Part shown: piece after piece, positions 1,991 through 58,461 of the stretch
Layout: each line of letters opens with the position of its first letter
Numbering within the stretch: position 1 is the first letter of the stretch
Assembly (NCBI GenBank): GCA_963920705.1
Contig: OY987225.1
Span: 29,883,538-29,947,537 of the forward strand
Reading direction: 5' to 3'
Source of the DNA: Odiellus spinosus
Taxonomy: Eukaryota > Arthropoda > Arachnida > Opiliones > Phalangiidae
Length of the DNA stretch: 64,000 nucleotides
Made by a program: the position numbers and the translations under genes
The notes under the pieces: model-generated
Databases searched by the model: none
What the model saw: only the letters and a program-made list of their open reading frames with translations
What the model was told of the DNA's origin: nothing

Positions 1991-2736
1991 TTAACGTATG
2001 TCTGGTAGTTCAAGCTCAGTGGCATCTTCACACACTACACGCAATTTTGACTGGTACCAACTGCCTCGATCTTCATGGCGACGATAACCAAGATACCAGA
2101 TTACGCTGCTAACGTGAACACAAGTACCTATCGTCAAACTACCACCTTTGCAATTGCAATACCAGCCTTTAATGGCATTTGCACCTGTCCCGTTCGGTAC
2201 ATAACGAATTAGAGCTTGGTGAACAGCTGAGGTGGAAAATTGACCAGGCACGCGTATACGAATTAAGTCATGTTCAACTTTGGACACTTCGACGCTGAAA
2301 GAGCCGGATTTCTCTATAGTCAACGCCACATAAGATTCAGCGCGTTTCGTTTTAAAGTCGCTCATTACCACCTCACGTACATCACTTTCACGAAGTACAG
2401 GGAAGTCTTGAAATTCACTATCCTCAATTCGTTGCCATTTAGACGGTTTGCGAAGCAGATTATCGCGCTCAACTACTTCCTTAAGAGGATTTTCTTTCGT
2501 AGAGACTGCCAGCATTTTTTCGACGGAGTCTTCCCAGGAACCTTTAAGATGTAACTCCGGGTGGTAGGCGTTCAACAGCGCAGCAGCAATTTGAAGAAGT
2601 TCCGGAACTAATGGTAACATATGCACAGGTATACGGTTTTGAAAAAAACGATACACCGTCTGCAAATGCCCATTACTAACTTCAACCGGCCACCTGAGGT
2701 ACGTTACTTGTCGGGAACGATTAACTTCTTGCGTGT
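1991..2736 (-). pseudogene. Duplicate of the transposase C-terminus (left palindrome arm)
   Basis: Mirror copy of the transposase C-terminal half. It has the same SWIM-like C-x-C...C-x-H motif and the same stop as the plus-strand copy, and two base differences (for example Ala against Ser in the LLQI-AALL segment). It lacks the catalytic core entirely. It exists only because of the inverted duplication and is not an independent gene. Confidence 0.7.
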
Positions 2737-25596: not shown

Positions 25597-28500
25597 TTAA
25601 GGATAAAGTGGTACCTGATTTGGAACTGGAGGAGATTGATTTTGAACGACCGGATTAGGTACGACCACTGACGCGACGGAAGCCGCTTGAATTGGCACTT
25701 GTTTATTTTGACCGAGCTGTTGTTGTTGGGGTATTTGATTTCCTAGGGGAGGTTGGTTAACTTGATTTCCTTGCTGAGGAGGTTGTTGATGATACTGTCC
25801 TTGTTGAGGAGGTTGTTGTTGTTGTTGTTGTTGATACTGTCCTTGTTGAGGAGGTTGTTGTTGTTGTTGATGATATTGTCCTTGTTGAGGAGGTTGTTGT
25901 TGATACTGTACTTGAGGCGGATGTCCTTGGGCTGGTTGTTGGAACTGTACTTGCTGAGGATGTTGTTGGAATTGTCCTTGAGGAGGATGTCCTTGTTGGT
26001 ATTGACCTTGCTGAGGATGTTGCTGGAATTGAGCATTAAGTTGGTTATAAATGATTACTAGTACTTAAAGTAGACAAAACCTGACTTGATTCAGGCCTTG
26101 ACAATTTGATTGTACCAAGCTCGCGAGGTATTTCTATTTACATGCGTGTCTATTTTAAGATTAAAGTAGCCTTTATTAATGGTGAGCAGCCTGACCTATT
26201 CTTCAGACTGCGAGAGCTATAATGCTCTAGAGACTAGATCTCTCTCTGTCTCTAAACCCAAACACCCCTGGTGGTGAGAGAATGAGAAAGTATCGCCATC
26301 TAGTAGCAAAGAATACAATATTACGTATGAATAATGACAGCACCTGTTGAGGATGTCCTTGTTGGTATTGTCCTTGCTGAGGATGTTGCTGGAATTGTCC
26401 TTGCTGAGGATGTCCTTGTTGATACTGTCCTTGCTGGGGATGTTGTTGAAATTGTACTTGTTGAGGATGTTGTTGGAATTGACCTTGAGGGGGATAATGA
26501 GGAGGAGGGACACCTTGAACGTGTTGGGGGACATCGGGATGATATCCTTGTCCCATATCAGGATGGTAAGGTGGTCCTCCACCTTGTTGGTATTGATACT
26601 GCATGTTTTGCGACATCTATGAGAAGATGATTAAAGTTAAATTGGGAGGAAAACTGGGAAAGATATTATTCTTAAAGAAAATGTTACGGATAATTGTCTA
26701 AGATGTTCTTCGTAAGAAGCTAGTTCTTCATCAGTGTAGACTCTTTCTTCGTCTAATCCTTTCCAGCCTTCATCTTGGTTGAATTCAGCCCGATGTGTCA
26801 TATCCATGAATTCTTGTTTACTGATTAAGCCATCTTTATTGGCATCAGTCTCGTTGTAAATGTGTTCCCTCATTCGATGATATTCCTCCATCATTTCAAC
26901 CGGATCATCATCACTATTGTTTGCTTCGTACATTTTCTTGATCTTTTCAAAGTTTTAATGTTTAAAATAAATTTTAATAATTAATATTTAATTATTTATA
27001 TTGATTAAAAATTTTAAATCACATTAAACATGACGATCAGCTCATAACAGTATTTTTGTTACTGAAAATTTTTGTTTTGATATAATGCTTTTGGCGGGAA
27101 AATTTAAAACTTTGATATATTTTGCAAGAAATTTAAATTTTTGCGCCAAAAAGTAGCTTCACGAGCGCCACCACCTATCTTAGAATACCGGTATTGATAA
27201 GCGAAATCTCAATATCAAATGGTTTAAATCCATCATTGGAATTAAGCCTATTTTAAGTTTTTAAGATAGATAAGTCAATAAGGAATCAATATGAAATTAA
27301 AAAATTCATTCTCCCTTTAAGTGCCATACCTCTAAGCTTAAAATTGCTTCAACTTCTTCCTCGTCTAAGTAACCATCTCCATTAACGTCTAAAATTATAC
27401 ATGTAGTATCAGAATATTTAGATATAACTTCAAATAAGATTGGCATTTTAGATGTTTAGAAATTACCGTGCATGGCGAAGAATGTGCTGGGATTAAATTC
27501 TTCTTTGGGAAGATTATCTTGCTTCTCCCAAACTTCTTCTAATTGAGGTTTACTTCCCTTAAAATTTAAAATACGCAGTTTTAGTTCACACTTACGAATG
27601 AGATTAAACGATTTAATTTTAAATTATTTACTGGATGATGAACTTTAGGATGTTCTTTATGTCTTTTTTGGGCTTCTAAGTGTTTGGCTTCGGCTTCTTT
27701 ACGTTCCTCTTCAGTCATGTTTTTCAAAGTTTCACGATAATGATGTTCCTTTTCCAGTTCGTATTGTTTAAATTCCTCTTTTCGTTTGGCATTTAATTCG
27801 TCCAGATCTTTGCTAGCCTACCAATGATTAGAATCATTTTAGGTTTTTCGTTAACAAGTATTAAGTCGAGTATTTGGTGTAAATACTTGGGAATTTTAAT
27901 TTCAAAACACTCAACTACTCGCGAGTACTTAAGCCGGCTACTCGTGAGTATTTAAGCCTTTTTCTCGCCCGTATATAAGCCAATTACTTGGAGAGTATTT
28001 TGATACTCGTCATGAGTAGAGAAACGAGGTAGATCAATAAATTTTTGAACTTACAGTTTTGATTAATTTCTTAAGATCTTCAACTTCGAATGTATGAGGA
28101 TTCCTGTAGTCTAAATGCTGAAGGTCTCTAAATTGACCTCCTCGATCTATTCCTAAAATTGAAAATCATAAAAAATGTGTTAGAAGTAAGGAATGAAACG
28201 CAATACAAAATGCAAAACAAAATAAATTAGTGTAAAGGTAAAACTAAAAAGTATAAACACTAGAGATTATGGTTGCCGAGTATTAGAGAGATTAGAACTT
28301 TAGAAGGGTTTGCGACTTTCGGAGGAAAAATCATGACGTGTATTGAAAACAAAAAAAGTGACAAAATGAAGCAAAAAATGTGTTTTTTTGTTTTTCGGAA
28401 CTGAGCTAACCATCACCAATGGGAGCCTTAGACAGAGTACGCCATCGTCGCATATCAGCTGGATATTCGAGGTTGTTTTTCCCGTTGTACACACCTAACT

Positions 28501-28979
28501 CATTATGTTCAACTTCTTGTCGTATCAAACTTCGTAGACGATCCAATTCGATTCTTTTTAATTCATCAAGTTTCGATCGAACTCCGTGGTTAACAAATTC
28601 AAGTTCTCTCGCAACTTTCCCAGACTACGAAGTACAAATAACATGTTAGGGTTTTTCCCAAATATCACATAACCTGAAGTAAAATACCTTGATGTCTTCC
28701 GCGGATACATTTTCAAGTTTCTTGGCAAAATCTTTGTCCTGTTCCAAGATTTGAACCACTTGTTGTAAGTATTTACCATATTCGAGTCCCTATGGGTGAT
28801 AGCTTATAATTTAATTGTATTAATTAAGATTATTTCATATTAATTACGAGATCTTCCTCTTGTTTCGCTTCCTCTTCGGTAGCTGGTTTCATTTTCTGAG
28901 AAGGATCAACGGGAGGACAAGTGATTGTTTGTAAAAATAACAATAATACTATCGCGGTGCCCAGAGCTGTGTACTTCAT
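25597..28979 (-). CDS. NUCB1: Nucleobindin (EF-hand Ca2+-binding, Golgi/secretory)
   Basis: Ten exons (minus): 28848-28979, 28688-28789, 28411-28624, 28055-28152, 27632-27817, 27467-27557, 27330-27388, 26688-26942, 26344-26616, 25597-26022; 1836 bp, 611 aa, phases closed. Signal peptide MKYTALGTAIVLLLFLQTITC, then the nucleobindin N-terminal region (LEYGKYLQQVVQILE), a charged helical and DNA-binding-like segment (LDELNAKRKEEFKQYE), EF-hand 1 (DVNGDGYLDEEE) and EF-hand 2 (DANKDGLISKQE), both with canonical ligands. The last two exons encode a long Gln/Pro/Gly/His repeat tail built from QFQQHPQQ and GQYQQGHPQQ units. Vertebrate NUCB1/NUCB2 are about 420-460 aa, so the tail is extra length. Identity is firm; the splice acceptor of the last exon lies inside repeat-like sequence and is the least certain junction. 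Confidence 0.94.
25740..26560 (-). repeat. Gln/Pro/Gly/His-coding repeats in nucleobindin exons 9 and 10
   Basis: Imperfect repeats of QFQQHPQQ, GQYQQGHPQQ and QQPPQQGQYH units, split by a 321-bp intron (26023-26343). The two exon blocks are near-copies of each other, so the repeat probably grew by duplication across the intron or before it was inserted. The antisense open frames here (Leu/Arg-rich) are compositional shadows. Confidence 0.75.
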
Positions 28980-29750
28980 GTTGTAACTGTTAAGTTTATA
29001 TTTGAACGATATTAATTTCGAAACATAGAAAGAATTATAGAAGCAGACTCACCAAATTAAAGGTCTAAAACGAGAAAATAATATATAAACAATGTTAAAA
29101 TGTATTTGCTGTCAGCCTGTCAACAGCTGCAGTTTCGCAAGTTCGATTTAGGAAGTATTTAAAAAAGCTAAGCCTAATTTTTCATAAGGATATTTATGCA
29201 GTATGAAACGTTTTATAACATTCCTTTATGTTTAAAATTAAGATTATTTCCCCAAAAACCAGTTTACTAACACAGTGCCCTATTTTTTCCCCCTAAGTAT
29301 ATAAAAGAATTAAATACACGCGAAAGAAGACGTGGCTCTATCTTCCTTCGCGCTTGACATAGGGCAGAATGGTTTTTCCCAGAGGAGAACGCCATAGCCA
29401 ATGAGAAATCAGTTTTCGCTCGCGCCAAATGGATTTCAACAACCAATGAGAATACAGTAATTCGAGCGCTAAATTTGACTTTGATACATGACACGTTTTA
29501 TTTCAAATTAAAACCGAGTTCAAACATAAAAGGTCTGAGGAATTCGGAACTAAAAGAATAAAAAAAAACATCTAATTATTCCAATATAAATAGACTGGGC
29601 ATTACGCCGTCTTCTACGTAATATGTTGTTAAACGCCAGACGTAAAACGTTTCGTAATATGACGCAAAGTTGTGCAATACGATTAAATACCTCTACCTCT
29701 TTCGCGTTTTTCTTTGCAACAGATTAGCGCGGGATTGGATTCTAGCCAGA
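28980..29750. promoter_or_regulatory. Divergent promoter region, nucleobindin / 83-aa gene
   Basis: 771 bp separate the starts of nucleobindin (-) and the small plus-strand gene. It contains GC-richer patches (29330-29480) but no exon that I can support. Shared regulation is possible from the arrangement only. Confidence 0.4.
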
Positions 29751-31639: not shown

Positions 31640-34600
31640 CACGCGGCTTTATCCGGACATATTCTACCTAATCGCACATTGATTGATCCTGGCGGTATGG
31701 ATTACTCCATCATAGAATCTTTATCATATAGATTAAATTTTAGGTAAGTTAAAATTTTAATTTGTTTTAATTTATGTTAAAAAGTGAAGCTGTTACGGAT
31801 TTTTCATGAACTCCAAATACAAATTGAGTAGCATTTTTGGAAAGATCGTTAAAAAACGATTAAAGATAGATATATATGCAATGAAAAATTAATCGCCATT
31901 TTCGAAATTTTTAAAATTAACAATTTCCCGCGATACTACGTCATCACTATGGTCACCTAGCTATTGTACAGCCTACAGTCTATTCTCGCGCGTTCTGGCA
32001 CGTGATAAGGTAGCTTTCGCGCGTTTTTTTTTCGTAAAAGTACTGTTTCTAGAAAATTCTACCTTTCTTGCGAAAATTATCGTTAATTACGTTCCAAAAA
32101 TAAACTACGTCATATCTCGGACAAAATAATAGAAGCTAGGTTAATTAGTTTCTTAGTCCTCTTTTCTCCCTCGCCTCTATACAGCCTTATTTTTCATTGA
32201 TTCAATTTTGTTAGATAATATAATAATTAAAAAGACAGACTTAGTTTAAGACAGTATTAGGAATAAATTTTGATACTGCTATAGTTTATTTGGCGCTGAA
32301 TTTGCAGTACAGATTAACCTAAGCTATCGGTTATCTCTATGATTTGTTGATTTAGTGATTAGAGGTCAATAGGGCTGTACGCGCTTACGAAACAAGGTGT
32401 ATTTAGACTATATTTAGAGCGGTTCTCATCAATTATTAAAAGCTGTGAATTATGAGAAAAGTTTCCCAGAAATTGAAGGGGAAATAAAATATCGATTAAA
32501 AATATGTCATACGGCGAATAATTAAATATTAAATATAAATTATTTATGTATGTGTCACGTAGCCTCACGATCTTGTAAACAAACTTTTACCGTTTTATTA
32601 ATAATAAAAGTTACGCGTGATATCGTAAGTTAAATCGCGTTAAATAAGTAAGACGTGAAATAATTTTTTTCTAATTTTGTAGAATTGAATAATATTCTAA
32701 ATTAAGAGTTTTTACGTTTGTTCATAAGTTAATAACTTAAGTTCTACTCTTAAAGGGAGTAGTTTACGTTCTAGCGAAAACTATAGGGCCATGGTTAAAT
32801 TTTTTAGGGGTAGAAATAGTTTGGAAAACTGCATGGTCGATTGAATTTCTTTCATCGGACATTAATTTGATTTAAATTATTTCTACAGACATTTGATTTT
32901 AATTTAATTTGAATTATTCCTCTATAACCACGTGATTTTAATTGTGATTTCAATTTATCTTTTTTAAAAACCTTACTATTTTAAACAGCTACAACCTCTT
33001 AACACCAGTCGATCAGATATGGGGAGTAGAAGACGAAAATGGAAATTGGTCAGGAATGATGGGGATGATACAAAATTTAGTGAGGTTCAAGGTTAAATGC
33101 TAAGCCTAATGACCTTATAAAACGATTAAAAAGTCTTACCTCGGTTAAATAGGAAGCGGACATGGCGATCTCCACCATTTCCATCTCGCAATCGAGGCTT
33201 AGACTGGTTAAATTTTCAAATCCATATTATTTCGACTCAGCCGTCTTCGCGTCAGAAGCGGTAGATCCATCCGAAATGTCAGAGACATCCTTGTATTTCT
33301 TGCAGCCATTTACGATAGAAGTCAGTTAGACGTTCTTCCTAATTTAGAGGTCAAAAGGTCATTTTTCGAAACATTGCAGGTTTGGTGCCTCGTTGGAATA
33401 GCTATATTAGTTCAATGGGGTTTAACCGCGATGATACACAAAGTACTTCAAGATACTCGCAATGGAAAATTTGGATTCAAAACATTGTCATTATGGCTCA
33501 AACAAGGTTAGAGTTCTTGCGCACTTCAACTGTGTGTGTAAGACATGACACTGACGTCATGAGAAAGCAAACCTCCTCAACTACTAACTTAAGTCTTAAG
33601 TAACTTATAATTTTTTTAAGTACATTAACTTTTTTTTAGATTTTACGTGGGACATACCTATTGACTTCCGACTAATCTTGAGCATGTTTTTATTAATCGC
33701 CCAACTAATGGCTTGTCTCTACGGCTGCAAGTTAACCTCATCGACCAGCGTGGCTTCAAAGGTGGAACAAATAGATACCGTAACCGATATGGTCCGTGCG
33801 GTTAAGGACAGAGATTACGTCGTAACGACGCAAAAAGGATCCGTCTTTGAAGAGAACATAAAGGTATTTTCATTCAAAATTAAGCTTAGGAAACTAGATC
33901 AACTCACGAAACGCTTTGTAGACATCCGAAACTGAGTACCTGGCGTTCATCAAACCAATGATGTCTATGAACGTATACACGACTCCGGATGAAATCAAAC
34001 AAGAATTGGTTCGAATGTTGAGAGAGAAACGTATATTCATTTTCTACGAGAGTGGGCTGCAGAGTTTAGTGGATAACATGACTTTGCACGGCTTGTTGCA
34101 TTTCTCCAAGGAGAAGCTTTTTTCGGACCGTCTAGCCATCGCTGTTGGCAAAGACTTCCAATGCCTGGATGTCATCAATAACGAGTAAATTATTATATTT
34201 CCAAAGTTAATCGGTCACCTTAGCTAAGCCCAATTAGACCACCTTCTCTAAGACTAACTAGACTACCATTGCTAAGCCTAATCATAAAACCTTCGCTAAG
34301 CCGAAGATAATTGAACTACGTACCCTGGACTTGAATTCTGAAGAGAAATGGCCTAATTATCTCGTTGCCCTATCCGGAGAGGGTTGAATTAAGAGTCCGT
34401 GGTACGTAATTAAATTATCGTTGGCTAAAACTAATCAGACAACCTTCGCTAATTAAACAAATTTTGCTAAGCCTTACTAGAGCACCTTATCACACAACCT
34501 TCGCTATACAAGTCTACATAAACCAAAATCATTTTTAATAAGCCTCATTAGGCATAAATGGCCTTGGTCTTCTCTTCCAGGTTGCGTATTCTAGCAGAAT

Positions 34601-34854
34601 CTGGTCTGATCGTCTATTGGCACTTTAAAATGATGATGACGTATTTTTACCGCAGACCCCAACCTGGAAAATGGGACAGGGTCATACAGGAAAGTTATAT
34701 CGAGTCCAGTGATTTGGTTAAAGCGTTTTACTTGGCGGTTACGGGTTACGGAATCGCGGTAATCTTTTTAATTGTGGAACTCGCTAGCCATCATTTCAAA
34801 ACGTTGGGTCAAATTAGGCGAAGGTCGACCGTAAGACCGCCTATTTTGTCTTAA
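31640..34854 (+). CDS. Ionotropic receptor (divergent IR), 5' end not found
   Basis: Variant ionotropic glutamate receptor, a ligand-gated cation channel of sensory neurons. Exons 31640-31743, 32989-33079, 33153-33320, 33380-33506, 33640-33863, 33922-34184, 34581-34854; 1251 bp, 416 aa, phases closed. The S1 half of the ligand-binding domain has GGMDYSIIESLSYRLNF, NGNWSGMMGMIQNL and EADMAISTISISQSR. Transmembrane segments are VWCLVGIAILVQWGL, then LILSMFLLIAQLMACLYG, and near the end AFYLAVTGYGIAVIFLIVEL. The S2 half holds PDEIKQELVRML and SDRLAIAVGK. The stop is at 34852. The N-terminus and signal peptide must lie upstream of 31640, and I could not place them. The intron after the first exon (31744-32988) contains a MITE fragment. 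Whether it is an antennal or divergent subtype cannot be told. Confidence 0.85.
31782..32140 (+). mobile_element. MITE family A copy, one end preserved
   Basis: Begins AGTGAAGCTGTTACGGATTT, and shares the internal words CTACGTCATCA-TATGGTCAC and ATTCTCGCGCG with copies at 47620, 48352 and 58577. The right terminal repeat was not found, so the 3' limit is approximate. It lies in an intron of the plus-strand receptor. Confidence 0.6.
34200..34560 (+). repeat. Degenerate tandem repeat in receptor intron
   Basis: About ten imperfect units of roughly 27-35 bp based on GCTAAGCCTAAT-(C/T)AGACCACCTTC, filling much of the intron between the last two exons of the receptor (34185-34580). The units have diverged considerably. 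Confidence 0.55.
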
Positions 34855-35052
34855 AAACTTACGTCTCAATAATCGCGCTCAATCTGTAGGTGTATTAAAA
34901 CATTTCCGATTCATGTATAAAAGAAAACTAGATTAATAAAAAAACAATTTCCGTTTTTGAAATCCCACATAGTCTTATCATTTTTAACTAACAGTTCCTT
35001 AATAAACTCGAAGTTCCTGTTGGTTTGTTTCGTGGATACATTGTAATTTGAA

Positions 35053-38000
35053 ATGTATTCGAACAAAATGTTTCGTTTAACGTGTAAGCTTATTCTGGCT
35101 GCTTTGTATATTGTCAATATAACCCATGGAATAGGTATCGAAACAGCCCCTGAAAATGATATCAAAAAAGACCCTGAAATTGATATCGATCATATCGAAA
35201 TAGCACCTGAAATTGATACCGATCATATCGAAATAACACCTGAAATTGATATCGATCATATCGAAATAGCACCTGAAATTGATACCGATCATATCGAAAT
35301 AGCACCTGAAATTGATATTGGAACAGCCCATGAAAATGATATCCAAACAGCCCCTGAAAATGATATCCAAACAGCCCCTGAAATTGGTATCGAAAAAGCC
35401 CCTGAAATTGACATCGAACTAAACCCAGGAACTGGTAACGCATCAACTAATGAAATAAATAAAGAACCAAGTTCTGGAATGAGTATCGAAAAACCTCCAG
35501 TAAGAGGTATGTATTATCGAAACTATACTGAATACGTATCAATAGAAATAGCTTTCTGACAGAGTTAAAGTGAGACTGTTACCTTCCAAATGTAATTTAA
35601 GCACAAATTTAAAAACAATTCAATACAAATCAGGGTTCACACAACTTTTGCAAAACCAATTTCCCCAATTTTAAAATTTCTTAAAAACGCGTCAACTCAG
35701 AGGTGTAAAAGTTTGAATAATGCTTTTTAATGGCATGAAAAATTCAAAATATAATCCACTCTAGCCCTTCGAAAAAATTGTAACAGCCTCACTTTAAATC
35801 AAATTTCCAAAATATTAAAATATCATGGAGTTAAAATTTCGAAAATGCAACGTTAATGCCAATTATATTGCGCTTAAAAATAATTTTAGAATTTAGGTAA
35901 ATATCAATTCGCGATTTCTTCTTTGTTCACTTTAAAATGACAAACTAATTAACATCTCATTAAAATTTACACTTAATTAATAAAGTTACTATTTAACTAT
36001 GAATTTTTACTTACAATTTCAATATAGATCTGGACTGCCCTTTACTTCCCGAATTGGAAAACGGCCATTACGATATTCTACCTGATAATAAAGTAGAAGT
36101 CGTTTGCGATCCCGATTACGATTTAATTGGACCATCCACCAAATCTAAGTTGCGTTGCGTGAGTGGCAAATGGATACCCAAGACACGATACCGATGTCGT
36201 AGAGCACGTATGAGGATAATAATTTCTACAAAGAATATTGTAGTAGAAGGCTTCAAGAAACCTTTCTCGATACAGAGAACGTATGTCCTGAGCTAGAGGA
36301 AGTAGAAAACGCTATAATGATTTACGATGGACGCCGGATTGGAAATATAGTTTACTATAATTGCGACCCAGGCTACTACATGATGGGAGACAAGAAGAGA
36401 TCTTGTACGGAGGCGAGATACTGGTCTGGAATATCGCCTAAATGTTATCGTAAGAATAATCAAATTCTTGAATTGAATCAATACTACAAGTTAACCTTTG
36501 AACTCTAGCAAATACCCTTGATCCGAAAGACGTGTATACGATGTTGGAGCATCATTTAACCCCCAATAAAACCGAAGGTCATGGTAATGATGTAAGCTAT
36601 ACCGATGCTCTTTTATTTTTCTTAAAGTTACGAACTCATTTTAGCAATGTATGGTCGAATATTGGGACCCGAAGTTTTCAAATCAGGGTTGGAATTATTC
36701 TTCGTCATAGATCGATCCAGCAGTATTGACCCGGTTGACTTGAACTACGCGAAAACTTTCGTCAAAAAACTTGTTCGCATTTTCAAAGGAAACGAGAATC
36801 GAATCAGTTGAGTTAATTAAGATTAAATTTACCCATTGATGTTTTCTGTATACAGTAAGATTTTAAATGACAACCATTAATTCAAAGATGGCACCAGAAT
36901 ATGCGTCATTACTTTTGGAACTAAGGTAATCGTGGATATTCCATTAGACAGCGCCGCCTTCAACAACGTCGATGTTACGGTGAAAAAGATAGATCTCATC
37001 CAAGTGCGTTTAATACTTTAAAACTTGGGAATGATTGTTTTGATCAGGCTGAGATAATTGGCAATTTTTAATGTAGGGTGAAGGCGGAGGGACTGCTATG
37101 GAACCAGCTCTCGCGAGTGTCTTCGTATATCTCGGACAACTAAGGGAGGGGGCGAAAAAGGCCCTATTTTTGGTAACCGATGGTGAACCAAATATTGGTC
37201 AGATTGGCGTAGAACCGGAAGACCACGCGAAGCAGTTAAAAGAAATGGGTAATTTTCTTGGAACTAAAAATACTTAATTAGCGTGTGAAACTACATCGGA
37301 ATTTTCGTTTCACTATCCCTTTATTCTCACAATAATTAAAGGGTGACACGCAGATAAATAAATTTACTATTGAAATGTGTGTAGCATGGTCTTAAAAGCG
37401 CCTATTTTTTGTATAATTATTATTTTAAAGATTTTTTTTTCCACTTAAATAAATTTATCCATTTAGCCACATGAGTATCACCCTTTAATCTTGTTCAGCC
37501 CTAGATCTAGGCAACTTTACTAATCTTTATAATTACGTCAAAATTCGTCGATTTAGGTTTCGAAATCTACTGTATCGGTGTGGGTAAAGATATCGGAAGA
37601 GAGCGTTTGACCAAAATCGCTACGGAACCGGCTTTAAACCATGTCTTCATGCTGGAAAACTTCAAATCTTTCGACGATGTGGTGAAATTGATACAAAACC
37701 CTTTAACTACGCCTCCCCCTCGTACGTATCTTTGTCTAAACTTAAAAAAAAATAGATATTGATTACGTGTAATTTTAGCGCCTCCACCTGGACCGGACGC
37801 TTGCGGTTTCTTGGGCGATTCGGAAACGGAAGCCAGTTACGATAAAGACAAAAAGCCATACCCCTGGTTAGCCGCCATTTACGTCTTCATAGGTGACAAA
37901 ATAAGGTTCTGTTCCGGAGTTCTGGTAAACAACCAATGGGTTCTGACTTCGGCTATTTGTATTCAACCTCATAAACATCCCATAGATGATTTAGAAGTGG

Positions 38001-38850
38001 GTTAAACCATTTAATTTTAATTAAATCAAACCTGGAATTAATTAAAACGTAATTACAGGTAACAATCGTCTTGGGAACGAGTGATTTGCAAAAAGAAGGT
38101 TTGAATTTCTTCGCCATAGAGAAGAGAATTTCGCCTTTGCACGTTCCGGACATGCTTCCCGAATTGAGGCTTGCCCTATTAAAACTCGATCGAAAAATAC
38201 CATTGAATACCAAATACAGACCCATTTGTTTAACACAGTCAAAAGGTTAGGCTTAGCAATTTCATATAATAATTATTAGGTTTTTAAAATTGGCGTTTCA
38301 ATTTCAAAGTCAAGGGAGAGGTTCACCAAATCGATTTGGCTAAAAATTTGATAATCGAAGGATGGGGAAGCCAAGTCAATCAAAAAATCGATAAGAGCTT
38401 GAGTCTAACCGGCTCTTACGTCTCGCCGTATTCGAGTCGAGTTCGAGCCAATGGTTTCAATTCGGAAAAAGATTGCGACAATTACATGACGAAAAGATAC
38501 AGACACGTCAAGAATAAGGTTGAAGTGAAACAAATTACGGAGAAGTTTAAATGCGTTGGAAATAGGTAAAACAAGTGACTTTAGGCTTAGATCGGCGCTA
38601 ATGTTTTTCAATCTTTCGCAGAGACGAAAATTTGAAAGTAACTCGTATTAAAAAACCAAGCATATGCGCGGGAAATTTCGGAAGTCCAATAATTACGAAA
38701 GACGAAAAGGAAAACCGTTATTATTTGCTCGGTATCCAAAGCAGCGAGTTTGGATGCTCCGATTTCAAAAGTTTGTACTTGGCCATTCCTTTTTACGTAA
38801 ATTGGATCGATCGCGAAACTGGTAAAAATGAAACCAATCATCAAGAATAA
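35053..38850 (+). CDS. Complement factor B/C2-like protein with a dead protease domain
   Basis: Twelve exons: 35053-35506, 36028-36207, 36276-36449, 36509-36583, 36645-36806, 36888-37003, 37077-37248, 37557-37721, 37779-37996, 38059-38245, 38310-38565, 38622-38850; 2388 bp, 795 aa (human factor B 764). Signal peptide (MFRLTCKLILAALYIVNITHG), a Glu/Ile/Asp-rich repeat segment (about 35-125), two CCP/sushi domains with four Cys each (about 155-270), a linker DPKDVYTMLEHHL as in factor B, a vWA domain (about 300-490) with complete MIDAS (DRSSS, the Thr in GEGGGT, TDGEPN), and a trypsin-fold domain (about 515-790). The catalytic triad is gone: LTSAIC instead of xTAAHC, ELRLALLKL instead of DIALL, GNFGSP instead of GDSGGP. 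Factor B normally has three CCPs; here two remain. It is therefore a secreted non-enzymatic homologue that could still bind a C3/TEP-like partner through vWA; that role is inference. The domain call is firm. Confidence 0.9.
35150..35420 (+). repeat. Coding repeat (I/D-E-I-A-P-E units) in the factor B-like exon 1
   Basis: About nine units of 24-33 bp encoding variants of DIDHIEIAPEI and ENDIQTAP. The segment sits where factor B has its first CCP domain. The unit copies are close, so the expansion is recent. Antisense frames here are shadows. Confidence 0.8.
35565..35797. mobile_element. MITE family A, short copy in factor B-like intron 1
   Basis: Terminal inverted repeats TTAAAGTGAGACTGTTAC (left) and GTAACAGCCTCACTTTAA (right) bound 233 bp. 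The ends match the 47620 and 58577 copies; the interior is shorter and diverged. Confidence 0.65.
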
Positions 38851-38907
38851 TACATTTTTACATTTTTTCCCGAAATCAATAAAAAAAAAAATTCCGACGT
38901 TATATAA

Positions 38908-41256
38908 TCAAATTGAAATTCGACAAGTCACGACATAAACGCAAAATTCCAATAAAAAGGCGAGACCCGAGACAATGGCCCCGATTGTCGCGATCAAAAC
39001 TGCCGTAGCGATTTCCTTCACTTGTAAACTATTGAATTGACCTTTAACCTCGTCGTTCGAAGCGAAACATAGGTTGACGCGGATTTTAATCATAGGTGGG
39101 TAAATATAATCCATCAAGTTGGCTTCCACGAAGTATAATATTCTATAAAGTAATAAACATTCAATTTGGTTATAATAATGTTTACGCCCATGGTGTCTAA
39201 AGTTTTGCTGCTCGATGGGATTAAATATTACACCGATTGGTACGCTTCAAATAAGTCATAACATGAACTGTAGGGGAACAGATTAAAAATTCCATGGAGC
39301 AATAATGCAGATAGGCAATGGTTTTGAAATGACGGTCGATTTTAAGTTGGAACCTAGGACCATTAACAAAGCACCTCTATCCTAATAGAATAACGACGTT
39401 AATAAGCGTCCTCTAAAGGCAAACAGTGCGGGAAGTTTTTTAACTAACAAAACAATGCGCGTGTCTGCCTATTCTTTATCCACTGTCCTAGTTCGAACCC
39501 TCGTATCTCCAAATTATTGCACCCATCAAAAGATAGATTTTTACCTTTGATTGATATCTTCCAAAAAATCTGGATTGATATTCTTCTGAAAAGCGATTCC
39601 GACGGGAATGTACCTATAGGGTTTCGAGAATCGAAAGCGGCATGTATCTTTCTGTTGGTATCTCTCGGCGAGAATCACTTCAAAAACTCTGCCCTCTTGC
39701 AAAATGATGGCTTCGCAGCCTTCCACTTGGTCTAAAGTCGCTTCGCTATACAATTCGTTGGAGGGCATAATGTAACTCGGGTTCATTCGAAGGTACACTT
39801 CCCTCTGACCCACGCCGCTTCCGTACGATTTCTATTCAAAATTAGGCTTAAATCAAAACTCAACTCGAGTCTAGTTTCGTAATTAACTACGCGTACTTTA
39901 AAGTAATCAACTTCGTTCGAGCCTTTATGCAAATACGGTTTCACCTCGGGAAAATCAACTACGTCTTCCAAACGTTTTATAAAAGGTTTTTCTTTGTAGA
40001 AAGCCAACAATGACGTCATACGAGCGCAGTACATATTCACCAAAACTAATGCCAACAACATCCAGAATCCGGTGATAATTCTGCCCGATATGGATCTAGG
40101 TAGCTTCGCCAAGGCTAAAGAATAGTAGGCTTAGCTATTTTATATTCAGCAACTACATAAACTAGCGCAGGCCTATATCTCTTGTACTCACATTTAAGTA
40201 TCAGACCAGAATAGACTTGCCACAATTGTTCCCCGAGTGTTTTAAAGAATGATAACTCTTCGGACAATGTGAATCGAATCAAAAGCTTGACCATTAGAAC
40301 CAAGGTGAAGATGAAACCGAGAGCCATCCACACTTTAACATCAAAAGCCGTGATAAGCCCGGAAAGTGATGGTCCCTTCGGTGGCCTTCCCACCAAAATC
40401 CGTATAATTCCGAGGAACACGATGTTAGAGAAGGATACGTAGTCAAATCTCTCGTCGGTGATAAGTAAGGGAGTCAAAGACAAGTTTACTTGACCTCGTT
40501 CCAGCATTCCCATTAATCCGGTCCAATTGCCGGAGTCAAAAATTCCGGACTCCTCCTCGGTTGGTTTAATAAGCGTGAATCTTGAATTAAGATTAGATAA
40601 TTATAGAATGATTGCTCAAGTTTTGTTGAAGTTATAAACGTACGATATATTCAAGGAAGTCGTGAAATAGTCCAAAAATTTGGCCATGGGACCACTAATA
40701 GAAAAAGTGTCGTTGTTCGTCACCCATATCGAAGGCTTCCACTGAAATACCATTTAAAATTAATGAAGGAACAATTTATCAGATGGAAAAGGTCCATGGA
40801 AGGGTTTCTTTTCAGCTGGTTGACCAACGTCGTATTGTTCTTCAAGCTCAATAATCTTTGCTATCAGGATACGTTTCATTGGTCAACCATTGGGCAAGAA
40901 ACTAGGGTCTCTTTCTCTTTCTACTTTAGCAGATGGTTCCTTTAGAACATGTTTGAAATTCACATTCTTCTACGCATAAATTTATTTATAGAGCATAGAA
41001 AAATAGGTCAAATAGTTAATTTCAAACTGCTCACCTGGAGATTAGAACTGATTAAAATTTAATATTTAAAACAACGTACTTCGTAAGCCGTCATAATTAA
41101 ATGTCTTGGGTAGTTGCTTGGTTTCTGCATATCTGAACATCAGAACACACCGCGAAAGAATTGATCAGGAATTCCAATACAAAATTTATTTCGTTCGAAA
41201 CCGCTTATGCTTTCAAAAATATTAAAATCTTGTTGCTGTGGCGTGAGACTTCGCAA
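38908..41256 (-). CDS. Ionotropic receptor (divergent IR) with one in-frame stop
   Basis: Exons (minus): 41080-41256, 40644-40741, 40192-40580, 39897-40114, 39545-39831, 38908-39142; 1404 bp, phases closed. The ligand-binding S1 half has WKPSIWVTNN, GNWTGLMGMLERGQV and SLTPLLITDER. Membrane segments are VWMALGFIFTLVLMVKLLI, then IITGFWMLLALVLVNMY followed by the A-x-x-T-S-L-L-A-F segment of iGluRs, and EIATAVLIATIGAIVSGLAF near the C-terminus. The 5'-most exon (LRSLTPQQQDFNIFES, then RNKFCIGIPDQFF) reads coherently but holds TGA at 41140-41142, just before CSDMQKPSNYPRHL. The gene is therefore a fresh pseudogene, a null allele, or starts at the Met right after the stop. The signal-peptide exon was not placed; a candidate is MLHVRIYFVLII at 41442-41478, whose phase I could not join. 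Confidence 0.82.
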
Positions 41257-43125: not shown

Positions 43126-44962
43126 CTACAATATACACTGCTCACGGATAACTTCCAAACATTTATCGTAGAGATATTTCTTGGCTTCAATCGCTATAAC
43201 AAAGTCGATATGGTTGAATTTGAGGAACGGTACCTCGAAATACCCAACTAAGTTCTTTATAAATTTCTTCAGCCTCGCTACGTCTTCCGGAACGGCTAGA
43301 AAATCATTTCTACCAAAGAAAAAGTTGACAGGAGCTGTTATCTTACTAAGGTCGAAATCCGGAGGTTTTACCTGTACATATTGGCATTGATTAAAAATAA
43401 ACATATAGTTTACAATTGCTTATTTAAGCATTTGCCAATTCCCTTAACCGCCATGAGGGCAACATTATTACAATTTATTTAAAAGTATGGCCTTTCGAAA
43501 TATACATATGTACAATACTTTCAAATACCTGTCCATATCGCTTCATATTTTCGACAGTTCCATAATCATATTTGCAAAATCTTTTCGACTTAAAGAGCTA
43601 AAACGGATTTAAGAGCGATTCTGAAACTCTAGTGTTATACACTTAAAAGTACTTAGAAGTAATTGTACCTGAATGAAGTGTAAAAGATTCTTCAACGATG
43701 TTCCAGCGGGGCCATGATAGCCGTAAACAGGAAGCCTGGTCTAATAGAATCATTTTTGATTAAATTTATATTTTAACGCTCCCTTTTTACGACTTTCAAC
43801 AATTACCTCGTTTAACTGTGCCTGGTCATATCCCATAATTAAAAATAAAATGTTGGAACAGGCTTTTCTGCTCGGATAAGCGGTGCAAAGTAAACTAACG
43901 AGGAATTTTTGTAAAGGGGTGTTAGGCAGAAATTCATATTTTTTAAACGTCTTCGATCCAAACTAAAAAATGAATTGAATTATGTTTATGTTCTCTTCTG
44001 AAAGAGCGTAAGAAACTTTCTCCCAAACTCTCAAGGAGGCGGTTTCATATACTGTTTCCGTTATTAATTAGAAAGATTTCTCAGGATTCGTTACGAACCG
44101 CAATCGCGTCAGAAATTGGTCCAATTAAAAATTTGACTGGACTTTTCAAGTTGCCAATAAAAGCAACGGGAGCTAAAGCCGTAAAAGCTCTGATTTTATG
44201 ATTAAATTCCGGTTTTTCTGATAACAAGATGAACATCGCGGTAGTACCCATGGAATGTCCAAAGTAGAACAAGTTTTCTCGTCCCGTTTTGAATAAGATG
44301 AAATCAATAAAGGCGGGCAGATCGTATATTCCCATTTCATAAAATCTAAAAAATATACTTAAATTAGAATAGCGAATACTTATCTAAGATTAAATACGTT
44401 CTTACGTGAAATTCCAGAAGCTTTTACCATCGGTTGGCAAACTGACGTGTTTCTTAGAATACGTATTACCCCTGAAGTTACCCATCCAAACGTCATAGCC
44501 CTGATCAGCCAATATGAAAGCTAGACTCTGATTTTGAAAATTTAACACCCAATAATCGGAGGAAAGCAATAATCCGTGCATCACGAAGACGGGTACCTTG
44601 CAACTTATATTAGACCCTCCAAACGGTGGTATCCTGATCAAATTCAAGTTGTAACCATCCTCGGTGATTACGAAATACTCTTCGACTGGGTATCCTTTAC
44701 TCTTAATCAATTCCGACTGTTAAGGATGTAATTAATTAGTAATTGACGTATTATTTTCAGTATTCTGGTCCTGAATGTCTATGGTACAACATATTGAACT
44801 CACAGTATTTCTAAAAGCATCCTCTTCGACATAACCAATAACATCATTAGCCTCTTTTTGGATCTTTGAAAACTCATAATTAAAATCTTTTTCTAAATTC
44901 TTAACCAGTGAGCATTTTGAGAAGTTGAAGAGCGCGACTAGAGAAATTAAGGCGATGTTCAT
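43126..44962 (-). CDS. Acid-lipase-like (lipase 3 type), secreted alpha/beta hydrolase
   Basis: Seven exons (minus): 44804-44962, 44406-44716, 44099-44345, 43807-43962, 43669-43740, 43529-43597, 43126-43371; 1260 bp, 419 aa, phases closed. It belongs to the lysosomal/gastric acid lipase family, which hydrolyses acylglycerols or sterol esters. Signal peptide MNIALISLVALFNFSKCSL; the abhydro-lipase segment KGYPVEEYFVITEDGYNL; the oxyanion region [29 protein letters not shown]; nucleophile Ser in GHSMGT; catalytic Asp in FFGRNDFLA; catalytic His in FNHIDF. All catalytic residues are present. One donor is weak (GTTCGT after 44099), supported by the same position in the neighbouring paralogue. Probably digestive or fat-body secreted; substrate unknown. 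Confidence 0.92.
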
Positions 44963-45643
44963 TTCAAATTTTCAATTGCAATCAGAAGTGAAAAGTTACA
45001 ATGTACAATATTTGAAGAAAAAGTTTGAATAGAACTTTATCTAGACAATTTACGGTTGACATTTAAAATATTGTAACAATGGTAATAAGATCAAATTTAA
45101 TGCCTGAAGATTTGTTTGTAGCTAACTGACAAAACAAAGAGTATATACTCGACTTCTGACGCTTGTAACAAAACATGTGATAATATTTACTGGTTTAATT
45201 TGTTACGTTTCTAGATGAAAAACTACCAGATGTATAAGTAACATAACAATAGTATGTTGCAACTCATTTTTCAAATAATATGCAACAACTGAAGGCATTA
45301 ACTTGTATTTTAAATTTGTGCTGGGCCGAAAGTTGTAAAAAGAGAGACACGTAGCGAAATAAATTCGGTCCAGATCTATTGAAATGCGTGTAGAATCTTC
45401 TTAAAAGCGTGTATAAAAATTTCGCGCAAAAAATATTCAACCGTTTTCTCGTAAAGATGATTTTAAATATTTTAAAATCTTCCAACCATTTCTGCTGAGC
45501 CAAAATAAACTTAACTTTTAATTATATGCAAAAACATAAAACATAAACAAAAAAACCCAAAATTTGAATAATCAACGGGTATCAAGGATATGAAACTTGT
45601 GTTCCAATAATCTCATTCTTCTTCAGAATAATCTCATATTGAG
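44963..45643. promoter_or_regulatory. Spacer between the tandem lipases
   Basis: 3' flank of the upstream lipase and promoter of the downstream lipase. It is AT-rich; no further exon was recognised. Confidence 0.4.
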
Positions 45644-48600
45644 CTACAATGTAGCTAGCATGTCCAAAATTTTGTCGTAAAGTAATTTCTTAGCGTCGAT
45701 TCCGTAGACGAAGTCTATATGGGTAAATTGAGGTAAAGGTACCTCGTACGATTCAATGAGATTTTTAATACGAGGTTTCAGGAGAGCCACGTCAACTGGG
45801 TGGGCTAACGCGTCATTGTCGCTCCAAAAAAGGGCTACCGGTGTAGTTATGTCCTCAACGTTGTATTTTGGAGGGTGATTCTTCGGAATAAATCGACAAG
45901 TAACTCCCAAATATTTTTGTAAATTTGTAAAATGAAAAATAAAATTTACCTGTCCATAAACTCTCATATTTTCGCTTTTCCCATAATCGTATTTAGTAAA
46001 TTCCTTGGAACCAACCATCTTTGTCGATTGTGAAAAGAACAAAATTTAAAAACTTTCCATAAGAAAACGTGGTTTTGCTAAGCCTATTTTGAAAATGATT
46101 ACTAGGTATCACAATACCTGAGCATAATGTAATACAGTCATTGTGGAAGTTCCAGCTGGTGTATGGTGGGTAATTACCGACAACCGGCTCTGTAATAAGG
46201 GCAATATCATTGGCGTAAAATAATTCCAGCATTGTTTTAAAACACACCTCGTTAAATTGTCTCGAGACACCTCCCGCCATTTGAAATGCAACATTTTGAC
46301 ATATTTCCCTAGTCGGTTGTTGGGAACATATCAAATCGGAGAATATGTGAAGCAAAGTCGAACTCGGCAAGAACTCATTTTGTCCCAACATGGCTAATAC
46401 GAACTACACAAAATGCGACTATAGTTAATGATTTTTAGGGTTAATTAGATGATGAGTCGATATTCTTACTCCGATATCGTTAGCGAAAGCCCACAAGTAC
46501 TTAATAGGGCTGGTCATGTGACCTACAGTGGCCACGGGTGCCAAAGCCAAGAAGGCTTTCACCTTCTTGTTGTATTCCGGCATTTCGGACAACATAGCGA
46601 AACCGATGGTAGTGCCCATGGAATGACCAACGTAAACCAACTGTTCTTGGTCAGTCGTTTCCAAGATGTAATCAATGACTGTCGGTAAATCGATCAATGC
46701 CATTTCGTCCCATCTTTTAATAATAAAAGTTAATTTTTCACGAAATAAATCCGCAATTTTTAAGACAAGTTAAATCTTACGAAAACTGCCAAAACTTGGG
46801 ATTAGCAGACGTATACTTGGTATGTTTCTTGGAGTAAGTGTTACCCCTGGCGTTAGCGATCCATACGTCATATCCGGCGTCCGCTAATATGAAACCGAGT
46901 GATTGATTAGCCGAATTCATGACCCAATCGCAACCCGAACTAATTAGTCCGTGATGCAAGTAGATTGGAGGTCTGACTTTATCATCGTTTCCTTCCTTGA
47001 TACCGCGTGGTATTCTTTTAATCCCTAAGACAAAACCGTCTTTGGTAATAACGTCATGTTCTTCAACTGGATATCCTTTACTGGTGATTAACTCCGGCTA
47101 TTAAATATAAATTACAACATGTTTTTGACAATGTACGAAGAATTTACCCTCTAATTTAAAGTCTTTGAACAACGCGCTTACGTAACCGCGCAATCTCGCG
47201 TAAGAAATAAACAAAAGATGTTTTTTTACTTTACTACTTCCTTAAGCCTTTATATAAAAACGTAGGAAAGTGAAAACTATACTGTTGCGCAAGGCGAAAA
47301 TTACACTTAAATGATTTTACAATAGGTTCACTCGTGCGCGAAATCCCGAAAACTGTGATTATTTTGTATCTGAGGTGCAATAATTAAATTCAAATGCGGT
47401 TGAAATCGTCATTATTAGAATATTAGATAGGTGAAGTTATCATTTTTCAAACGCGTACCTATACGGGTAGCTACCATTGATCTAGCAAGAGGCTATAGAT
47501 AGACGTATACGTTAATAAACCAATTTCATGGTGTAGTGGTTAAGTGGAATGTTATTTTGTTTATCAAAAATTAAGGGTGTTTTCCTTTTCTGTAGTCGAA
47601 GTCTAAAGAAAAGCATTTCTTAAAGTGATGCTGTCACCGTTTTTTAAAAATATCGTTAAAAAAAGTATTAAAATAATAAAAATATCACATCTTGAAAAAT
47701 ATTTTATAATTAGCTTCGAAATTTTTTGGGAAACCCAATCCGCCATTCTACGTCATCATTATGGTCGCAGTGACTATTGTAGAGCCAATACTGTTGTTTT
47801 CGTGAAATTACTTAACCAGGATAGTAATTTTAAACTTATCTATGAGATGGGGAAGAAATCAAATTTTACTTGGGCAAAATCTGGTCGTAACCAGCTAGAA
47901 CAACCAAATATGTGTTTTTTTTTTGTTTTTTTTTCCACCATATCAGCTACAACAGTTCAAGAGTCAATAAGTTTTTTTTTTTTCTTCTTCTTTTGATAGG
48001 CCTTGAGGGGGTGGAGCTTATCCTTGGGCTATGAACTGAATAAATTAAAGGCAATAAGTAAAATATTACTTCTACATTTTTATGAATATCTGATAAAATG
48101 AACAAGCAGAAAATATAATCTATAGGCCATCGATAAACAAACAGCATCACTTTAATTACACCCATTTGATTACGAAATTAAAAGGGAAAAATTCCTAGGA
48201 ATTTCAAATATATAATCATTTCGGTATTGAATTTCAAATACAAATTTTTCAAGTTGAGATTGGGAAGAGCTATGTAGGAGTAAATATTTTCTTGGAAAAG
48301 CCGAGACGTATTAATTCGCATATGACAATGTTAAAGCCTAACGATTAAAACTTAAAATGAAGCTTTCATTTTCGAATTTTATAAAACCAAAAATTCCCAG
48401 TAAAACTACGTCATTTTCATTGTCACGTAGAGCCTAGAGTTAATTCTCGCGAGTGATACGGTAATTACGGTTGGTTTCACGCGGTCTTTTTCGTAAAAGT
48501 ACTTAACCGAGAATGGAAATTATCGTTAGTTACGTTTATGAACAAAACCTCTTCATCCATCGGAAAAAAATATATATAAATTTTGAAGTTCAACACCATT

Positions 48601-49943: not shown

Positions 49944-51617
49944 GACTGAATGTCTGCCTGACGACTGATATATCTTTATAAACTAAGAATTTTTGCCCAA
50001 ATGCCAAGAACTCTTATACTTACATAATATTTCCGAAAACAATCGTAGGTAAGAAAGATCCTCTTACAATAGCATTTTGTACGTCATGTCGCGTTATTCA
50101 AAAATCAATTATGTCATTTATACCTGTATATCTCGTCGAATCAGGTTCAAGAGTGTAGTTCTTGGTCAATTTAATTACCAAATATCTTCAAAAAACAACC
50201 AAGAAGCGTTTAAAAACGAGGCACGCGAATTTTGACGCACGTTCAAGGAAAATTCAAGTCAAATTTCGTTTAAATTGCCCGTTTATAAGGAGATAAAATC
50301 ACAAATATTACTTATGAGTCAGAAGTAGCGGTGATAAGAGATATTAAAATACAAGACTTATTTTCTACGCTCTACACGTACTCATCTTATTCTTATAGCC
50401 TTAAAACTGTTTAACCTTAAACGTTTGGTTCATTAGATAGTTTAAATACGTTTAAAAATACGCGTATAAAGTTATTCAATCGGGTGGAAAAATTCATTTT
50501 AACAATAACTAACTTAACTGCTAAAAAATAGTATTATAATACCGAGATATATCAATTATTCGTAATCCTATGGGAAATTCTACAATGATGAATAATCTTA
50601 TGGGACTTTGTACTAATGTTAAACAAAGATTAATCAAATTTAACTTATTTAAAAAGCGAAATTATGCAATTAATCTCACATTTGGGAAAACGATATTACG
50701 AATTAGCACGATTAATCCAATAGGAATGCCGATTAATCCTATGGGAATTAGGATGATGCTGATTAATCCTATGGGAATCAGTAATTTGCCGATTAATCCT
50801 ATGGGAATCAGTATGATGCCGATTAATCCTATGGGAATTAGAATGATGCCGATTAATCCTATGGGAATTAGAATGATGCCGATTAATCCTATGGGAATTA
50901 GAATGATTATGATTAATCCTATGGGAATTAGAATGATATATGATTAATCCTGAGGGAATCAATGTGATGCCGATTAATCCTATGGGAATCAGTATGATGC
51001 CGATTAATCCTATGGGAATTAGAATGATGCCGATTAATCCTATGGGAATTAGAATGATATATGATTAATCGTATGGGAATTAGAATGATATATGATTAAT
51101 CCCATGGGAATTAGAATGATATATGATTAATCGTATGGGAATTAGAATGATATATGATAAATCGTATGGGAATTAGAATGATACCGATTAATCCTATTGG
51201 AATCCTATTAATTCCTAAGAGTAAAATACAAATGTTATTACGAACACTATTATGAAGATTACTCCCATAGAAAAACGCCTTTGTGATATGAGATGACGCT
51301 ATTATGATGATTAATCCTATGGGAAAACGCTGTTATAATCATTATTGCTATGGAAAACGCTATTACGATGATTAATCCTATGGGAAAAGCTTATAATCAT
51401 TACGCCTATGGGAAAATGATATTATGGCGACATTCCCATATGAGAAAACCGAAACACATTGATAGATATTTACTGTTATCGGGAGAAACAATATAGTTTA
51501 ATAATATCCAAAAAAATCCCACAACCTTATAAATGAAAATCCCCAAATAAATATTATATAATTATAAATGTAAATTAATGATTAATATATTGGTTATACG
51601 AATACGTAATTAATACT
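49944..51617. other. Intergenic with minisatellite
   Basis: Promoter side of the lipase (from 49944) and 3' flank of the transporter. Apart from the minisatellite and its decayed flanks I see no gene. Confidence 0.4.
50711..51206 (+). repeat. 30-bp minisatellite
   Basis: About 17 units of GATTAATCCTATGGGAATTA plus a variable end (gaatgatgcc, or gaatgatatat). Units are 30-31 bp and close in sequence, so the array is young. Looser variants continue upstream (from 50570) and downstream (51240-51430). It gives an uninterrupted INPMGIRMM-type frame that I regard as a by-product. Confidence 0.9.
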
Positions 51618-56884: not shown

Positions 56885-57330
56885 GATAATGGTCTTCGCC
56901 ATGGATAAAATTCCCACAGTATTATTACCTTAACATAATGGTCTTCGATCCCCATGGATAAAATTCCCACAGTATTATTACCTTAACATAATGGTCTTCG
57001 ATCCCCATGGATAAAATCCACACAATGTTTCCTCCATAGATAAATACCCATGTTTCCTCCATAGATAAAATACCCATGTTTCCTCCATAGATAAAATACC
57101 CATGTTTCCTCCATAGATAAAATACCCATGTTTCCTCCATAGACAAAATACCCATATTTCCTCCATAGATAAAATCCCCACCATGTTTCCTCCATAGATA
57201 AAATATCCACAATATTCTCCTACATAGATACGATCAGCATAATAGTCTTCCCCATAGGTTCGATAATCAAAGGGGTCTTCCCCATAAACACAATAAACTC
57301 TCATAAGACTCAACTTATGGGAAATTCCCT
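56885..57330 (-). repeat. Compound minisatellite
   Basis: Two to three 56-bp units (ATAATGGTCTTCG-(A)TCCCCATGGATAAAATTCCCA...) are followed by about seven 27-bp units (ATGTTTCCTCCATAGATAAA ATACCC), then decayed copies to 57330. Both unit types share CCAT(G/A)GATAAAAT-CCCA, so the short unit probably derives from the long one. Confidence 0.85.
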
Positions 57331-58461
57331 TCATCTAGTGCTGTCTAAAACTAGCCAAATTGGGCTACATACTCTATATTCGGGTAACCCAATTTTCGAG
57401 GCGCCGAAAGACGTTCATAAAATCAGTTTGGCCTTGCGAAAGATTGAAGCAAGCTTTGACCTTGCAAAGTTAATTTTTTGCTACAAAACTTGATTTACGA
57501 ATTATACGGCCGCCGATAGTCAAACTAATTTGCAACTAAAAACCCCGATATGAAAGTCGATACTTCCCCCCTTTTAACGCGCTATCAACTTAACTGGGTT
57601 CAGTTTTGAAATCTTGAAAAATATCTTTAAAAACTCTGGCGTCAAGATAATGCCTCCCCGTGTAAAATTAAGGAATTAGAAATATTTTAAATCCCCTTTG
57701 GCGCCAATAAACTTTAGAACAATTAGAACCATTCAGGTTTTTCCACGTGTTTACTTTATACTGGAAATTTTGTTCAAATGTAAAGGTATTGTTTTTTTGA
57801 AAAGAAAACGGGGCTTCTAAAAACGTAAACATTTCCTAATACGGAAATTCTCGAGGTTCAACGAGCTGAACTTGAAATATTTAATTTTCAAGATTAAGAT
57901 AATTTTAAGACTAATTAACGCTTAATAAATATGTTGCCCAAAAAGATACATCCACACTTTATCAATTTAACTATACCATTTATAAATTAAACTTAATTTC
58001 AATTAAAATGTTCCATTCTCATTAGAAAGTTATCGGTATTTATTAAAATAACTTTAATATTAAATTAAATAATATAATTTTATTACTATTAATAGTATAA
58101 GGATTAATTAGTGAAAATAATCCTATGAAATTAATAATTTTTGTAATCTTCCAATTTATCCTGAAAACAAATAATAAAAAATAATTTTGGTGCATTTAAT
58201 TAGAAATTGTCACAAAGTATCTTTAAATTATCTTTATCGAATTCGAATCAAGAAGTTAATCTTTAAAGTTTACATTTCTCGAATACTTTAAATAATAATT
58301 CTGTTCCGATTTTAGAAGCAAAGATAGACAAGTTTTATCCCATCCATATCGAATTAAATTAATTAACATATCGCTTATATAACTTTGGCTTATATAAACT
58401 CTCGACATATCTACTATAAATCCATTCTTATTGAAATAAAAATTACCATTGGTAATGAAAT

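What the first reader, a model, noticed from the sequence alone, without database searches (positions are those of the whole stretch)
35053..38850. Factor B/C2-like protein whose protease triad is entirely replaced
The sequence shows CCP-CCP-vWA-trypsin-fold, 795 aa, twelve exons with closed phases. vWA keeps all MIDAS ligands while His, Asp and Ser of the protease are Ile, Arg/Leu and Phe. In vertebrates factor B binds C3b by vWA and cleaves C3/C5. Here binding could remain without cleavage, suggesting a decoy, scaffold or regulator of TEP-type proteins. To my knowledge factor B genes are uncommon in insects, so both retention and loss of catalysis are notable.
Basis: partly seen in the sequence, partly recalled or inferred. 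Interest (0 to 1): 0.85.

Follow-up and report, generated by a model that had tools for sequence, protein, structure and literature searches.

The report
Catalytically dead factor B-like protein
This gene encodes an intact, apparently secreted relative of the complement enzyme factor B whose cutting site is lost while its metal-binding grip is kept; similar dead versions are known from spiders and a clam, so the main surprise would be its host, if that is an insect.

Summary
Twelve exons at 35053-38850 (+) join into 795 codons with 11 of 11 GT-AG introns: hydrophobic leader, acidic repeat, two CCPs, vWA, trypsin fold. Human factor B and C2 align colinearly (E about 1e-18; 147 of 583 aligned residues identical to factor B). 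The five MIDAS ligands are kept. The triad is gone: His to Ile559, Asp to Arg609, Ser to Phe739; Asn738 replaces Asp194. The introns before and within the protease exons are 56-64 nt, too short to hide exons that restore it.

It is not the first. Lox-FB of a spider has two CCPs, MIDAS kept and all three triad residues replaced; two further 2-CCP homologues (Hasarius FB-3, Ruditapes FB) also lack the triad (PMC4714745). This is a new member of that kind, with an added N-terminal repeat. Family membership rests on architecture: each domain alone is not closest to factor B.

If the host is an insect, which I could not show, it would contradict reports that complement genes were lost from Hexapoda. 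Most likely it is a non-cleaving adaptor. A TEP partner bound in the classical way is doubtful.

The parts
34916..34923 (+). TATAAAAG, possible TATA box, 137 bases before the start codon
   Evidence: position; function not tested
35053..38850 (+). whole coding region, 12 exons, 795 aa
   Evidence: spliced; exons 35053-35506, 36028-36207, 36276-36449, 36509-36583, 36645-36806, 36888-37003, 37077-37248, 37557-37721, 37779-37996, 38059-38245, 38310-38565, 38622-38850
35053..35131 (+). probable signal peptide (about residues 1-26), hydrophobic core at residues 13-23
   Evidence: hydropathy only; no signal-peptide predictor was run; end of the stretch approximate
35136..35437 (+). tandem-repeat region coding an acidic, Ile/Pro-rich N-terminal extension (33-base units, 4.8 copies; 24-base units, 5.3 copies)
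   Evidence: TRF
36036..36197 (+). CCP1, Cys155 to Cys208
   Evidence: Pfam Sushi 17.9 bits, below the 20.7 cut-off; aligned with factor B CCP2
36284..36445 (+). CCP2, Cys215 to Cys268, interrupted by no intron
   Evidence: Pfam Sushi
36656..36658 (+). Arg299, candidate for the factor D/C1s-type cleavage Arg, 18 residues before the first MIDAS Asp
   Evidence: aligned with the Arg of LGR|KIQ in C2, but three columns away from the scissile Arg in the factor B alignment; cleavage not tested
36692..37690 (+). vWA domain (about residues 311-489, four exons) with MIDAS D317, S319, S321, T393, D422
   Evidence: Pfam; residues
37802..38850 (+). trypsin-fold domain from Cys508 to the C-terminus, in four exons
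   Evidence: Pfam; alignment
37955..37957 (+). His57 position, ATT = Ile559
38167..38169 (+). Asp102 position, AGG = Arg609
38674..38679 (+). Asp194 and Ser195 positions, Asn738 and Phe739
38878..38883 (+). AATAAA, possible polyadenylation signal

Best explanation
The gene encodes a non-catalytic member of the complement factor B/C2 family, of the two-CCP, triad-less kind known from spiders and a clam. Shown: an intact gene, factor B domain order, MIDAS ligands kept, active site destroyed at all three positions, cysteines of both CCPs and of the protease domain kept. Inferred: it is secreted and works as a docking protein. The CCP pair binds lectins or a surface; the Mg-loaded vWA binds an acidic or carboxylate ligand, perhaps after a cut near Arg299 frees the vWA-protease part; the dead protease domain is a protein-binding module. 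It would recruit or block other factors rather than cleave them.
For: Colinear match to factor B, residues 4-619 of a 655-aa query onto 67-692, E 1.6e-18, and to C2, E 3.4e-19; 25% identity to human factor B, the value PMC4714745 gives for Lox-FB. MIDAS kept, triad replaced. No IVGG activation motif, and 25 residues between the 168 and 182 cysteines as in human factor B against 14 in factor XI (one protein each). Eight protease-region cysteines fit the four usual S1 pairs (positions, pairing recalled). Published 2-CCP homologues without triad. Horseshoe crab C2/Bf binds lectins (cited in PMC4714745) and is cut in a Mg-dependent manner with microbes (PMC3351276 passages).
Against: The top PDB match of the whole product is complement receptor 1, through its many CCPs. 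The vWA alone scores best with mussel PTMP1 (74.2 bits) and collagen VI (70.7); C2 is 33rd at 23.9 and factor B is not among the 60 shown of 70. The protease domain alone lists neither factor B nor C2 among the 60 shown of 323, nor does its C-terminal half among 60 of 177. No expression, binding or selection data. The adaptor role is inference.
Confidence: 0.55

Rival explanations
1. It regulates or decoys TEP proteins through the same MIDAS contact that factor B makes with C3b.
For: MIDAS kept. Anopheles SPCLIP1, a non-catalytic serine protease homologue of the clip type, is required for TEP1 to accumulate on microbes (PMC3764210, abstract).
Against: The NTR/C345C domain that is gripped (recalled) is described for C3-like proteins and not for the insect-type TEP in PMC7962413. 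No TEP gene was looked for or found in a genome.
Confidence: 0.15
2. It is a relic: a factor B gene kept by chance and on its way to loss, with no function.
For: Triad and Asp194 replaced; a C3 partner is reported absent from hexapods, if the host is one.
Against: Open frame of 795 codons over 12 exons, 11 of 11 GT-AG sites, MIDAS and structural cysteines kept, coding G+C well above intron G+C.
Confidence: 0.12
3. The CCP-vWA-protease order arose separately; it is not a complement factor but another secreted protease homologue, for instance of cuticle, venom or reproduction.
For: Single domains score closer to other proteins than to factor B/C2.
Against: One colinear alignment over all domains, missing activation motif and 168-182 spacing as in factor B. 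I recall no other family with this order.
Confidence: 0.15
4. It still cleaves, by a non-classical active site.
For: The Lox-FB authors say that loss of activity was never tested for triad-less forms (PMC4714745).
Against: Phe for the nucleophile, Ile for the base, Arg for the Asp, Asn for Asp194.
Confidence: 0.03

Closest known systems
Lox-FB of Loxosceles laeta (PMC4714745)
   Same: Two CCPs, vWA, protease domain; MIDAS kept; none of the triad residues conserved; about 25% identity to human factor B
Hasarius adansoni FB-3 and Ruditapes decussatus FB (as described in PMC4714745)
   Same: Two CCPs; triad not preserved
   Different: 636 and 697 aa; extent of triad loss and MIDAS state not spelled out for them in what I read
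Human factor B and C2
   Same: Colinear CCP-vWA-protease, MIDAS
   Different: Three CCPs and an intact catalytic triad; no N-terminal repeat
Insect clip-domain serine protease homologues such as SPCLIP1
   Same: Dead trypsin fold in a probably secreted protein
   Different: No clip domain found here, CCP and vWA instead, no IVGG motif

Membership tests
Complement factor B/C2 family | CCPs, then vWA, then trypsin-fold domain in one chain | tested here: met
   CCP1 below the Pfam cut-off
Complement factor B/C2 family | five MIDAS ligands in the vWA | tested here: met
Complement factor B/C2 family | cleavage Arg in the linker before the vWA | tested here: inconclusive
   Arg299 aligned exactly in C2, three columns off in factor B
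Complement factor B/C2 family | no R|IVGG activation site at the start of the protease domain | tested here: met
   IVGG not found; that this marks the family is recalled and agrees with the C2 and factor B lines
Complement factor B/C2 family | vWA and protease domain each closest to factor B/C2 | tested here: not met
   against PDB chains only, where the factor B/C2 entries named are vertebrate-type. This is a similarity rank, not a tree, so it lowers the claim without excluding it
Complement factor B/C2 family | phylogenetic grouping with factor B/C2 | not testable with these tools
   no invertebrate factor B sequences could be fetched
Complement factor B as C3 convertase | His-Asp-Ser triad | tested here: not met
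   I559, R609, F739
Two-CCP, triad-less factor B homologues | two CCPs, triad replaced, MIDAS kept | tested here: met
   kind described in PMC4714745
Clip-domain serine protease homologues | clip domain before the protease-like domain | tested here: not met
   Pfam scan of the product lists 5 families at E up to 0.001, no clip

The most novel reading that the evidence does not exclude
The host is a hexapod, and a factor B-family gene has outlived C3 there: freed of its enzyme role and its classical ligand, it is kept as a Mg-dependent binding protein with a new partner. This would contradict the published view that complement genes vanished from Hexapoda.
Probability: 0.35. Interest if true: 0.7.

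Novelty: new member of a known kind. Interest (0 to 1): 0.45.

Why it matters
If the host is an insect, the reported loss of complement from hexapods is wrong for factor B, and there is a natural case of a complement protease kept only for binding; what its vWA grips without C3 becomes a testable question. If the host is a chelicerate or myriapod, it is one more dead factor B paralogue and fairly ordinary.

Tried and rejected
Splice form that restores the triad: rejected within the gene, the four introns before and within the protease exons are 57, 62, 64 and 56 nt and tblastn finds no other copy in the window. Sequencing slip: rejected, at least 6 base changes. Contamination: unlikely, ligand-gated-channel Pfam hits lie at 39786-40600; the receptor-like exons that I read before the gene (33922-34185, 34558-34851) had no Pfam hit. 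Relatives in IMG/VR with a 308-aa piece: 25 pattern matches, 0 confirmed. Host class: no genome held, 0 tRNAs, 0 Rfam matches; Pfam on 20 window ORFs gave 10 with a hit, of general families (for example SART-1, a DDB1-type propeller, lipase, MFS, sulfatase, a DDE transposase), none of which names a class. Immune promoter: the strict kappaB pattern GGGRNWYYCC matches at 3 places in the window (12.8, 22.1 and 57.3 kb), none near the gene; this says little. Tree and dN/dS: no relatives. Structure prediction: not run, because the tool takes proteins that the DNA gives letter for letter and this product is spliced.

Papers: 10 searches. In the rows listed I saw no paper on an insect factor B gene; several lists were cut (30 of 247, 25 of 309, 40 of 8,277) and only openly licensed papers are held. 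One crustacean transcriptome lists contigs named complement factor B and C3 whose named sources are cat and cow (PMC6034857), which I take as possible contamination. PMC11172050 on Tenebrio serine peptidases and homologues (125 homologues) has no 'vWA' or 'Willebrand' in its main text (its supplements were not searched).

Full report
Gene. The reported gene is there. I spliced the window at twelve exons and obtained 795 codons and one stop; 11 of 11 introns are GT-AG and the phases close. Exon G+C is 0.41, intron G+C 0.28. A TATAAAAG lies at 34916 and an AATAAA at 38878. tblastn of the product against the window gives 3 hits off the locus, best E 2.7. Pfam finds ligand-gated channel domains on the other strand at 39786-40600, so an ionotropic receptor gene lies just downstream; the ORF that ends at 34854, 198 bases upstream of the start codon, I read as another receptor's last exon, without Pfam support.

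Domains. Pfam gives Sushi, VWA and Trypsin. A first Sushi is below the cut-off alone, 17.9 against 20.7 bits, but has its four cysteines and aligns with CCP2 of factor B. phmmer against PDB chains puts complement receptor 1 first, through its many CCPs, then C2 (E 3.4e-19) and factor B (E 1.6e-18); the factor B alignment runs through residues 4-619 of the 655-aa query in one stretch. From the printed lines I count 147 identities in 583 aligned residues. The five MIDAS ligands are kept.

Active site. In the factor B alignment LTAAHC reads LTSAIC, DVALIKL reads RLALLKL and GDSGGP reads GNFGSP: I559, R609, F739, with N738 beside it. These codons are at least 2, 3 and 1 bases from any His, Asp or Ser codon. 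The introns before and within the protease exons are 57, 62, 64 and 56 nt, too short to hide alternative exons, so the splice form that would refute the finding cannot come from within the gene. Eight cysteines at 508, 544, 560, 629, 690, 716, 735 and 765 fit the four usual pairs of such domains (pairing recalled).

Is it factor B? For: the domain order; no IVGG motif; 25 residues between the 168 and 182 cysteines, as in human factor B, against 14 in factor XI (one protein of each only); an Arg 18 residues before the first MIDAS Asp, aligned with the cleavage Arg of C2 but three columns off in the factor B alignment. Against: the vWA alone scores best with mussel PTMP1 and collagen VI, C2 comes 33rd, and factor B is not among the 60 shown of 70; the protease domain alone shows neither among 60 of 323, nor its C-terminal half among 60 of 177. 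PMC4714745 reports the same 25% identity to human factor B for Lox-FB, an accepted member. I hold membership likely, about 0.8, not proven.

What is known. PMC4714745 (parts 1-4 of 5 read) describes Lox-FB: two CCPs, MIDAS kept, and none of the three triad residues conserved (S, N, P). It says that Hasarius FB-3 and Ruditapes FB also have two CCPs and did not preserve the triad. Its Table 1 lists five invertebrate two-CCP proteins, 636-697 aa, without extra domains. The 795-aa protein here is longer, with an acidic repeat coded by minisatellite arrays of 33- and 24-base units. A dead factor B is thus a known kind. A hexapod case is not reported in what I saw: PMC4840205 (passages) finds no complement genes in the crustaceans and hexapods it examined, PMC8960428 (passages) lists C3-like genes as lost in Hexapoda and Crustacea, PMC7962413 (passages) says C3-like molecules are absent there, and PMC4714745 says factor B is missing from several insect genomes. 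Sekiguchi and Nonaka 2015 is not held.

Mechanism. Shown: a grip without a blade. Inferred: an adaptor. A dead clip-type homologue, SPCLIP1, does act on TEP1 in Anopheles (PMC3764210, abstract), so a TEP link by another contact stays possible. Horseshoe crab C2/Bf binding to lectins (cited in PMC4714745) gives a route that needs neither C3 nor cleavage. Horseshoe crab C2/Bf proteins are cut in a Mg-dependent manner with microbes, at an Arg inferred from the mammalian site (PMC3351276, passages).

Limits. No relatives, expression or selection data were within reach, and a scan of IMG/VR gave none. If the host proves to be an insect the interest rises to about 0.7; as it stands I score 0.45.

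Noticed in passing
window 1991-2809 (-) and 2618-3718 (+): Two open frames in opposite directions share a transposase C-terminal part, 246 of 248 residues identical; the + copy has a DDE_Tnp_4 hit. An inverted duplication of a mobile element.
   Followed up: partly
window 25597-29048 (-): Gene with a weak EF-hand match (below cut-off) and a long glutamine-rich stretch; I read it as nucleobindin, a recalled name.
   Followed up: no
window 43129-44971 (-) and 45644-47097 (-): Two neighbouring lipase-like genes; Pfam Abhydro_lipase at 44405-44719 and Abhydrolase_1 at 46428-46769.
   Followed up: no
window 50540-51064: Minisatellite read as repeated INPMGIRM on one strand and open on the other as well.
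   Followed up: no
window 56928-57334 (-): Another repeat array, open in overlapping frames, with units like GILSMEETWVFYLWRKHGYFIYGGNM.
   Followed up: no
window 34854-35053: Only 198 bases separate the stop codon of the upstream frame from the start codon; a TATAAAAG (34916) and an AATAAA (34935) lie close together there.
   Followed up: partly
window 35136-35437: The coding repeat is 92% regular in its 33-base part, so its length may vary between individuals.
   Followed up: no
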